NCBI GenBank assembly: GCA_003022435.1
Contig: PXUA01000001.1
Coordinates: forward strand, 124,001 to 188,000
Source of the DNA: Bacteroidetes bacterium SW_9_63_38
GTDB lineage: Bacteria; Bacteroidota; Rhodothermia; Rhodothermales; Salinibacteraceae
Length of the DNA: 64,000 nt
Direction: 5' to 3'
Below, piece after piece: positions 9,983 through 12,457 of this stretch (its first letter is position 1; each line of letters opens with the position of its first letter). The translations under genes were made by a program, and so were the position numbers. The notes beneath the pieces were generated by a model. It was not told the DNA's origin, searched no databases, and worked only from the letters and a program-made list of their open reading frames with translations.

Positions 9983-11392
9983 TTAATTGAACGCCAGTGC
10001 CCCCTGCCGCTCCCGAGCAACCTCCGTTGGCACTGGAAGCTTACGCAGGACCCGGCTCTGGAGCCGCAAAAATCCATTGGCGGCTCGCTGGCAATGGGCC
10101 TCCATCCACTCCGTCGCCACCGAGCCGTTGAGGTAGTCCAGGAGCCGGTCGAAGGAGATGCCCTCTTCCGGCACAAGGTAGTATACGGTGTGCCGGGGAA
10201 TGATCTCGCCGGTGCGCTCGGCCCAGAATGTCGGTTCCTTCGCGATGTCCTTGAACACAATCTTCGGCCGGAGGAGGTCCTGCATCGGCGGCGTCTCGTG
10301 CCAGGCATACCACGGCTTCCCCGCCTTCTGCACGCAGGACCGGTTCTCCAACCGCTCGCGGTGCTGCCGAGCCCATTCCCCAAAGGCCCCGAGTTCGCGT
10401 TCCTTCGGAAGCGTCCCGTCGCTACGGTAGGGACACGCAAACACGCTTTCTGGATTGGACGCCCCGCCATGCGTAAGTTCTTTCCCCGATACCGTCGGGC
10501 GGGTCCACGTCGGCGCAAGCCCCTCGGGCACCTCATCATTCTCAAAGACAAAGACCGCATCGGCCCCGGTCGCCATTCCGGGCGACACCCGGACGGTCAC
10601 GTCCCCAAGCGTCAATCCGGTATCCACTCCCGAAAGGTCTTTGCCCCGTACCGCCGCCGCCCAGCTCTTGCCGCCCGACGGCAGTTCTACCTGATGCGTC
10701 GTCCCGTCTCGCGTTTGGATGCGGGTGTCGCTGCCAGCAGGCGCACTCCCCTCCTCGCTCTTACGAACGGTCGTCACCGACGGGTAGGCCGTCAGTTGTG
10801 GAAAGGCGTCCTCGTCGATGTGGTTGATCTCCTCCACATGGTAGGACGCGTTCCCGCGCCCGCCGCCGGTCACCATCGTTCGCAGCGGCCCGGCGGTCTC
10901 GACGTACTCCCACTTCTCCGGCGTCACGAACACCAAGCGCCCCTCCGGCGCAAGAAGCGACAGCGCTCGCTCGAAGAACAGGAGATACAGGTCAAAGCGG
11001 CCCCTAGCGACCCGGAAGTGAGAGCGATAGCGCGTCTTCTCGTCTTCTGATAGGCCCTCGATCGGAACGTACGGCGGATTGCCCAACACGTAGTCGAACG
11101 GCCCTTCCTCGGCCATTTCCGAACCGAGAAAATCTGCATTCCGCACACGTATGTGATTCACCCTCAACCCTTCAGCCTGCTCAGCAAGCCCCGGATCCTT
11201 CTCAACTGCGAGGCCGCTCGGTACCGGCGTGCCCCCTTCCTGACAGATCGTCTCCACGGCTTTAGCAAACGGCGCCTCCGCTCCGCACCCCGGATAGAGG
11301 ATCCGGTCGCCCTCCGACGGCGGGTTGGCCGCAAACAGCCGGCGAGCCGTTCGTGTAGCCAAGGCGGGAGGCGTGGGATGATGACCGTTCAT
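9983..11392 (-). CDS. N6-adenine DNA methyltransferase, PaeR7I/XhoI-like
   Basis: This SAM-dependent DNA methyltransferase of 469 residues would methylate adenine in a restriction site. The SAM-binding motif is RILYPGCGAEAPFAKA (about residues 29-44), and the catalytic motif IV is VLGNPPYVPIEGL (about residue 100). RFDLYLLFFERAL and LVFVTPEKWEYVET follow, and the C-terminal half has the target-recognition region. The order resembles M.PaeR7I, whose site is CTCGAG; specificity here is inferred from the adjacent PaeR7I-like endonuclease remnant. The start at 11392 lies two bases after the endonuclease stop, so the pair is co-transcribed. Sites with the sequence CTCGAG do occur in this window (for example at 16448 and 39130). 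Confidence 0.86.
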   Translation of the reverse strand: MNGHHPTPPALATRTARRLFAANPPSEGDRILYPGCGAEAPFAKAVETICQEGGTPVPSGLAVEKDPGLAEQAEGLRVNHIRVRNADFLGSEMAEEGPFDYVLGNPPYVPIEGLSEDEKTRYRSHFRVARGRFDLYLLFFERALSLLAPEGRLVFVTPEKWEYVETAGPLRTMVTGGGRGNASYHVEEINHIDEDAFPQLTAYPSVTTVRKSEEGSAPAGSDTRIQTRDGTTHQVELPSGGKSWAAAVRGKDLSGVDTGLTLGDVTVRVSPGMATGADAVFVFENDEVPEGLAPTWTRPTVSGKELTHGGASNPESVFACPYRSDGTLPKERELGAFGEWARQHRERLENRSCVQKAGKPWYAWHETPPMQDLLRPKIVFKDIAKEPTFWAERTGEIIPRHTVYYLVPEEGISFDRLLDYLNGSVATEWMEAHCQRAANGFLRLQSRVLRKLPVPTEVARERQGALAFN

Positions 11393-11394
11393 GA

Positions 11395-11901
11395 TCACCG
11401 GGGGGTTTGTGGAAAAGAGAGACACCCCGCAAACGGCTGCGGCGAAGGGGCAAACACGCCCTCTTCGTACGCCTCCAGCAAATCGGTGCTGCTCCCGATC
11501 GCCTCCTCGGCACGGTTGTTCAGATTGTTGCCGAAAGAGCTTCCTTGCGATTTGTACTCGACCGCAGCGAGAAGCTTTCCGTCGTGAACAACGGCCGTAT
11601 CCCATTCTTTCTCGTGGCGAAAGAAACCGGGCAGTGTCGCATGGTAGTCGTGCTTGACCGACGTGCGAGGCGTACCTGCCGCGACGAGCAGGTCCTCGAC
11701 GAGGCTTGCAAATCCATCCATCTGTCCGCCGCCCAGCACCTCTGCCCGGCGCCCACGGGCAGTGTTGCTTGATGAGCGCTGCTCCTCGGCCTGCCCGGAG
11801 CGGGTTTCCCAGTAAAATTGGGCCGCACTGGCGATCTCGGGCGGGAGGTTATCAAGGGACGGACGGTCCTTTTCACTCCCAGAATCTGAGGAAGCAGCCA
11901 T
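11395..11901 (-). pseudogene. PaeR7I/XhoI-type restriction endonuclease, C-terminally truncated
   Basis: The 168-residue product starts MAASSDSGSEKDRPSL and matches the N-terminal two thirds of the PaeR7I/XhoI endonuclease family. It has FYWETRS near the start, GGQMDGFASLVEDLL, and the PD-(D/E)xK-like core KEWDTAVV then LAAVEYKSQGSSFGNNLNNR, then EEAIGSSTDLLEAYEEG. The family usually continues for about 75 more residues after a PFVGWL-type segment. Here the frame reads PFAGCLSFPQTPR and stops, two bases before the methyltransferase ATG. No frame downstream carries the missing part. The catalytic acidic residues and Lys remain, but the protein is probably inactive. This suggests deletion of the 3' end, leaving a functional methyltransferase. 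Confidence 0.8.
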
Positions 11902-12128: not shown

Positions 12129-12299
12129 CTACTCCTCGACGACGCTAATCGACTCCACCTCCTCCTCTGAAAACTGGGCGGTGTCCCCGTCCGCCGCTTC
12201 GATCTCGTACCCCTGCCGGGTCTTCCGGATGTCGTCTCGGGACTCGACCTGATATCTGATTTTCTGCAAATCCGTGGTAGTCACTTCGGCAACGAGCAT
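12129..12299 (-). CDS. Small acidic hypothetical protein (56 aa)
   Basis: The product, starting MLVAEVTTTDLQKIRYQVES, is short and strongly acidic at the C-terminus (DTAQFSEEEVESISVVEE). The pattern of a charged beta-strand-like segment followed by an acidic tail looks protein-like rather than random, and the codon bias fits its neighbours. I do not recognise a family. A longer in-frame extension to 12422 is unlikely because it reads through the edge of a repeat element. Confidence 0.5.
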   Translation of the reverse strand: MLVAEVTTTDLQKIRYQVESRDDIRKTRQGYEIEAADGDTAQFSEEEVESISVVEE

Positions 12300-12457
12300 T
12301 GTGCTGGACTGCTTGTTCTGGAAGGCCGTCGATAAAAGAGGGAAAAGGCAACACGACAAGCTGCAGGTGAGGTTCAGAAGATCGAAGACCGGTCGGCGAG
12401 GAGAACGGCCCCGTCCAGGCATTCGTGCGTGCCGGACAGGTCCGGCTGATCTCCTTC

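What the first reader, a model, noticed from the sequence alone, without database searches (positions are those of the whole stretch)
9983..11901. PaeR7I/XhoI-like restriction-modification system with a decayed endonuclease
The methyltransferase is complete, but the endonuclease ends about 75 residues early, directly next to the methyltransferase start. The catalytic EYK and Asp residues are retained and the C-terminal part is gone. The host likely keeps CTCGAG methylation without restriction. This is a clear snapshot of a system turning into an orphan methyltransferase.
Basis: partly seen in the sequence, partly recalled or inferred. Interest (0 to 1): 0.6.

Follow-up and report, generated by a model that had tools for sequence, protein, structure and literature searches.

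The report
XhoI-type restriction system, endonuclease truncated
A salt-loving bacterium carries a DNA-methylating gene next to a partner DNA-cutting gene that has lost its last third, so the cell probably still marks its DNA but no longer cuts foreign DNA; this kind of decay is well known.

Summary
On the minus strand, a 168-aa PF04555 (XhoI/PaeR7I) endonuclease ORF (11395-11901) ends 2 nt before a complete 469-aa adenine-methyltransferase ORF (9983-11392). Salinivenus lutea, in the same GTDB genus, carries the intact pair (252 aa and 468 aa, 86-nt spacer). By comparison the window lacks about 335 nt: roughly the last 91 codons plus most of the spacer. About 40 sampled relatives have endonucleases of 234-271 aa. 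The lost part takes half of one core strand, a further strand, two long helices and the invariant Tyr192 and Arg195. The missing piece is nowhere else in the held assembly.

The surviving codons show normal constraint (dN/dS about 0.07; methyltransferase about 0.12), so the deletion looks recent. CTCGAG is the most avoided 6-bp palindrome by maximal-order Markov in the sampled genome (observed/expected 0.20), fitting past CTCGAG restriction, although relatives without the system avoid it too. Methylation, loss of cleavage and specificity were not measured, and reads could not be checked for misassembly.

Orphan methyltransferases beside degraded endonuclease genes are a described category. This is an ordinary, well-resolved new example. 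A side observation is a second broken system in Longimonas halophila.

The parts
11395..11901 (-). XhoI/PaeR7I-family (PF04555) endonuclease ORF, 168 aa, C-terminally truncated; codons 1-161 homologous to intact relatives
11551..11601 (-). Retained catalytic segment D101 ... E115-Y116-K117 of the PD-(D/E)XK site
   Evidence: alignment; D101, E115 and K117 invariant in 38 sequences
11393..11418 (-). Deletion junction: 26 nt not alignable to the relative's endonuclease; holds the new stop codon (11395-11397) two bases before the methyltransferase ATG; about 335 nt are missing relative to S. lutea
9983..11392 (-). Complete Eco57I-class (N6-adenine type) DNA methyltransferase, 469 aa, NPPY motif and C-terminal target-recognition region present

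Best explanation
This is a chromosomal Type II R-M pair of the XhoI/PaeR7I endonuclease family whose endonuclease gene was recently cut short by a deletion of about 335 nt, from codon ~162 into the spacer before the methyltransferase. Shown by sequence: the truncation, the intact sister system and the complete methyltransferase. Inferred: the fragment cannot fold into an active nuclease because half of one core strand, a later strand and two helices are gone; the methyltransferase still methylates, probably CTCGAG; and the cell therefore no longer restricts. The endonuclease stop now lies 2 nt before the methyltransferase ATG, so the leftover frame may serve as a translated leader (coupling, inferred).
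For: Intact orthologous pair in S. lutea. Endonucleases of 234-271 aa in about 40 sampled loci, apart from the interrupted Longimonas and Cyanaurora copies. Missing C-terminus not found elsewhere in the held assembly. The lost part includes invariant Y192 and R195 and the strands and helices after residue 161 in a model of pLDDT 88.5. Methyltransferase full length and under purifying selection, dN/dS about 0.12. CTCGAG observed/expected 0.20, lowest of 64 six-base palindromes by maximal-order Markov.
Against: No methylome, cleavage or expression data. The assembly is 84% complete and no reads were available, so a misassembly is not excluded. The surviving endonuclease codons show no relaxed constraint (dN/dS about 0.07; relative-rate chi-square at most 1.33), which is expected for a recent deletion but also for a functional short protein. 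CTCGAG is also under-represented in the S. ruber-like genome G003, which lacks the system, and S. ruber M31 shows no CTCGAG methylation (PMC12613981).
Confidence: 0.85

Rival explanations
1. Assembly artefact: the genome has an intact endonuclease and a misassembly dropped about 335 bp.
For: The genome is an 84%-complete draft in 19 contigs, and no reads or second strain could be examined.
Against: The locus lies inside a 195,831-base contig, the methyltransferase frame resumes intact at its start codon, and no second copy or leftover C-terminal piece exists in the held assembly.
Confidence: 0.07
2. The short protein is a working endonuclease or a DNA-binding regulator, kept by selection.
For: Low dN/dS (about 0.07) in the surviving codons and an intact catalytic motif.
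Against: All intact relatives keep the lost region with two invariant residues. The deletion cuts a core strand. Low dN/dS is mostly ancestral and cannot date a recent deletion.
Confidence: 0.05
3. The pair was never a CTCGAG system: this halophile branch recognises another site.
For: The methyltransferase is only 27% identical to the pRSB105 PaeR7I-annotated methyltransferase, and no relative of this branch with measured specificity was found here.
Against: The endonuclease is about 41% identical to the PaeR7I-annotated one with the catalytic core conserved. CTCGAG is the most avoided 6-bp palindrome by maximal-order Markov here, and is nearly absent in the Longimonas relative.
Confidence: 0.12

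Closest known systems
PaeR7I / XhoI Type II R-M systems (PF04555 endonuclease; CTCGAG, N6-adenine methylation)
   Same: Endonuclease family and catalytic D...E-x-K core; adjacent adenine-class methyltransferase.
   Different: Endonuclease truncated by about 91 residues; gene order R-M instead of M-R; methyltransferase only 27% identical and shorter (469 aa against 574 aa in pRSB105, coordinates).
Salinivenus lutea DBO XhoI-family R-M pair (L002)
   Same: 86% identity over the retained endonuclease part and 81% over the methyltransferase; same gene order and relative orientation.
   Different: Endonuclease intact (252 aa), 86-nt spacer, different chromosomal neighbourhood.
Orphan methyltransferases beside degraded endonuclease genes (Seshasayee et al., cited in PMC6471742)
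   Same: Complete methyltransferase next to a broken endonuclease gene.
   Different: Nothing essential; here the intact sister system shows what was deleted.
Longimonas halophila XhoI-family locus (L037 / G014)
   Same: Same family, same R-M order, also decayed.
   Different: Broken by a 180-bp multicopy MITE-like insertion in the endonuclease and a frameshift in the methyltransferase, so both genes are damaged.

Membership tests
XhoI/PaeR7I endonuclease family (PF04555) | Profile match above the curated cut-off | tested here: met
   134.7 bits against cut-off 25, but only positions 2-123 of 191
XhoI/PaeR7I endonuclease family (PF04555) | PD-(D/E)XK catalytic Asp and ExK | tested here: met
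   D101, E115, K117 present and invariant
XhoI/PaeR7I endonuclease family (PF04555) | Full-length domain including the C-terminal third | tested here: not met
   About 91 residues missing, including invariant Y192 and R195
XhoI/PaeR7I endonuclease family (PF04555) | Cleaves CTCGAG | not testable with these tools
   Only indirect: CTCGAG avoidance
Type II R-M system | Complete adjacent endonuclease and methyltransferase genes | tested here: not met
   Endonuclease gene truncated; methyltransferase complete; activity not measured
Orphan methyltransferase derived from a decayed R-M system | Complete methyltransferase with its catalytic NPPY motif | tested here: met
   Full-length alignment with relatives; Eco57I domain
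Orphan methyltransferase derived from a decayed R-M system | No intact cognate endonuclease in the genome | tested here: met
   Only one endonuclease match in the 84%-complete assembly and no C-terminal piece elsewhere
Orphan methyltransferase derived from a decayed R-M system | Active methylation of the genome | not testable with these tools
   Needs SMRT or nanopore data

The most novel reading that the evidence does not exclude
The truncated endonuclease frame is kept as a translated leader that couples translation to the methyltransferase, and the methyltransferase is kept because it protects the genome against XhoI-type R-M systems circulating between Salinibacteraceae and haloarchaea (a 'vaccine' methyltransferase).
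Probability: 0.1. Interest if true: 0.4.

Novelty: new member of a known kind. Interest (0 to 1): 0.17.

Why it matters
It is a clear example of the first step of R-M decay, with the intact sister system, the exact junction, normal constraint on the surviving codons, and strong avoidance of the presumed site in the genome. With the separately broken Longimonas copy it gives a small comparative series in one family. The principle is already established (Seshasayee et al., via PMC6471742; site avoidance as a trace of lost systems, PMC4687349).

Tried and rejected
A split endonuclease with the missing part elsewhere: rejected, best match E 0.33. A second endonuclease copy in the genome: none. Solved relatives of the endonuclease: no sequence match in the PDB, and Foldseek gave no significant match (best E 0.09; weak matches include EcoT38I, SgrAI and BstEII). 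Virus-borne copies of either gene in IMG/VR: none. sigma-70-type promoter scan: no sites. A precise empty site with insertion ends was not obtained: in one genus member (G002) the two outer neighbours lie about 256 nt apart with no R-M genes, but intergenic DNA is too diverged to place the ends, and the small 97-aa ORF lies elsewhere in other species. The NCBIfam BREX PglX matches of the methyltransferase are far below cut-off and were rejected.

Full report
Observation. The minus strand carries a 168-codon ORF (11395-11901) and, two bases after its stop, a 469-codon ORF (9983-11392). The first matches Pfam XhoI (PF04555, 4.7e-39) but only over profile positions 2-123 of 191; the second matches Eco57I-type N6-adenine methyltransferases, with a weak TaqI-type specificity domain. 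The window lies in a 2.84-Mb, 19-contig, 83.8%-complete draft assembly; the endonuclease has a single match there.

What was lost. Salinivenus lutea DBO, placed in the same genus group by the genome search, holds an intact pair: endonuclease 252 aa, 86-nt spacer, methyltransferase 468 aa. Over the shared parts identity is 86% (endonuclease residues 1-161) and 81% (methyltransferase). The DNA alignment shows that homology to the endonuclease stops after codon 161 and resumes at the methyltransferase start; 26 unrelated bases lie between, against about 360 in S. lutea, so about 335 nt are missing. The missing part was not found elsewhere in the assembly (best E 0.33). Among the loci fetched, endonucleases are 234-271 aa; exceptions are the window, Longimonas halophila (insertion) and a Cyanaurora draft with an internal stop. 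The lost part holds invariant Tyr192 and Arg195. In an AlphaFold model of the S. lutea protein (pLDDT 88.5, pTM 0.85) the cut falls inside strand 157-165 and removes helix 192-205, strand 211-217 and helix 236-248, while D101, E115 and K117 lie in the retained part. That the remnant is inactive is inference from this anatomy.

State of the survivor genes. The methyltransferase aligns end to end with relatives and keeps the GNPPY motif. Pairwise dN/dS against S. lutea is about 0.12 for the methyltransferase and about 0.07 for the surviving endonuclease codons, with no significant excess of changes in the window endonuclease lineage against six haloarchaeal outgroups. The deletion therefore looks recent; the test has little power on one branch and, since synonymous sites are near saturation (dS about 1), it mainly records ancestral constraint.

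Specificity and past activity. The endonuclease is about 41% identical to a plasmid gene annotated paeR7IR; PaeR7I recognises CTCGAG and methylates the adenine (PMC3031569). In 464 kb of this genome CTCGAG occurs 49 times against 246 expected by a maximal-order Markov model (0.20; bootstrap 0.13-0.26), the lowest of 64 palindromes by that model (second lowest by a first-order model). S. lutea gives 0.32, S. ruber-like G003 0.34, G009 0.48, and Longimonas 0.06 (whole-genome counts). Avoidance can outlive a lost system (PMC4687349), and relatives without the system also avoid the site, so this is supporting, not decisive, evidence. S. ruber M31 showed two m6A motifs, neither CTCGAG (PMC12613981). 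The methyltransferase is only 27% identical to the pRSB105 PaeR7I-annotated one and the gene order is reversed, so the specificity is inferred.

Context. Only one of 12 genus members searched besides this genome has the pair, and the next closest endonucleases are haloarchaeal (up to 77% identity), ahead of other bacteria at 51% or less apart from Longimonas (55%), consistent with horizontal transfer among halophiles. In genus member G002 the genes that flank the region here (a DUF2237-like gene and an epimerase-like gene, named from sequence only) lie about 256 nt apart with no R-M genes between them.

Comparison. Orphan methyltransferases next to degraded endonuclease genes are a described category (Seshasayee et al., as reported in PMC6471742), and about a hundred truncated solitary endonuclease genes were found in a REBASE-based survey (PMC3488263). 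This locus is a clean new instance. Reads, methylation and enzyme activity could not be examined here.

Noticed in passing
L037:5250-5440 (Longimonas halophila; G014:C7:60824-61003): The XhoI-family endonuclease of L. halophila is interrupted by a 180-bp MITE-like element with imperfect terminal inverted repeats and an apparent 8-bp target duplication (AGAATGGG); the genome search gave 45 matches to it, about 25 near full length. The adjacent methyltransferase has a frameshift near codon 370.
   Followed up: partly
G014 (Longimonas halophila genome): CTCGAG is nearly absent: 68 sites in 3.7 Mb, observed/expected 0.06 in a 400-kb sample, although the XhoI-type system there is broken in both genes; a possible trace of lost restriction.
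   Followed up: partly
L056:4001-4486 and hits H34-H40 (Enterobacterales plasmids): Many mobilizable plasmids carry only the C-terminal part of a PaeR7I-type endonuclease (query residues 89-249) with no listed gene there; in the one region read no methyltransferase gene is listed nearby.
   Followed up: no
L003-L021: The closest endonuclease relatives after S. lutea are haloarchaeal (56-77% identity); in two of them (L016, L019) the methyltransferase lies in the opposite orientation.
   Followed up: no
window 12129-12422: Small ORF (97 aa by the longest start; the C-terminal ~70 aa conserved) found in 8 of 12 other genus members, but over 100 kb away from the DUF2237-like gene in G003 (S. ruber-like), so the region around the R-M pair has been rearranged.
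   Followed up: partly
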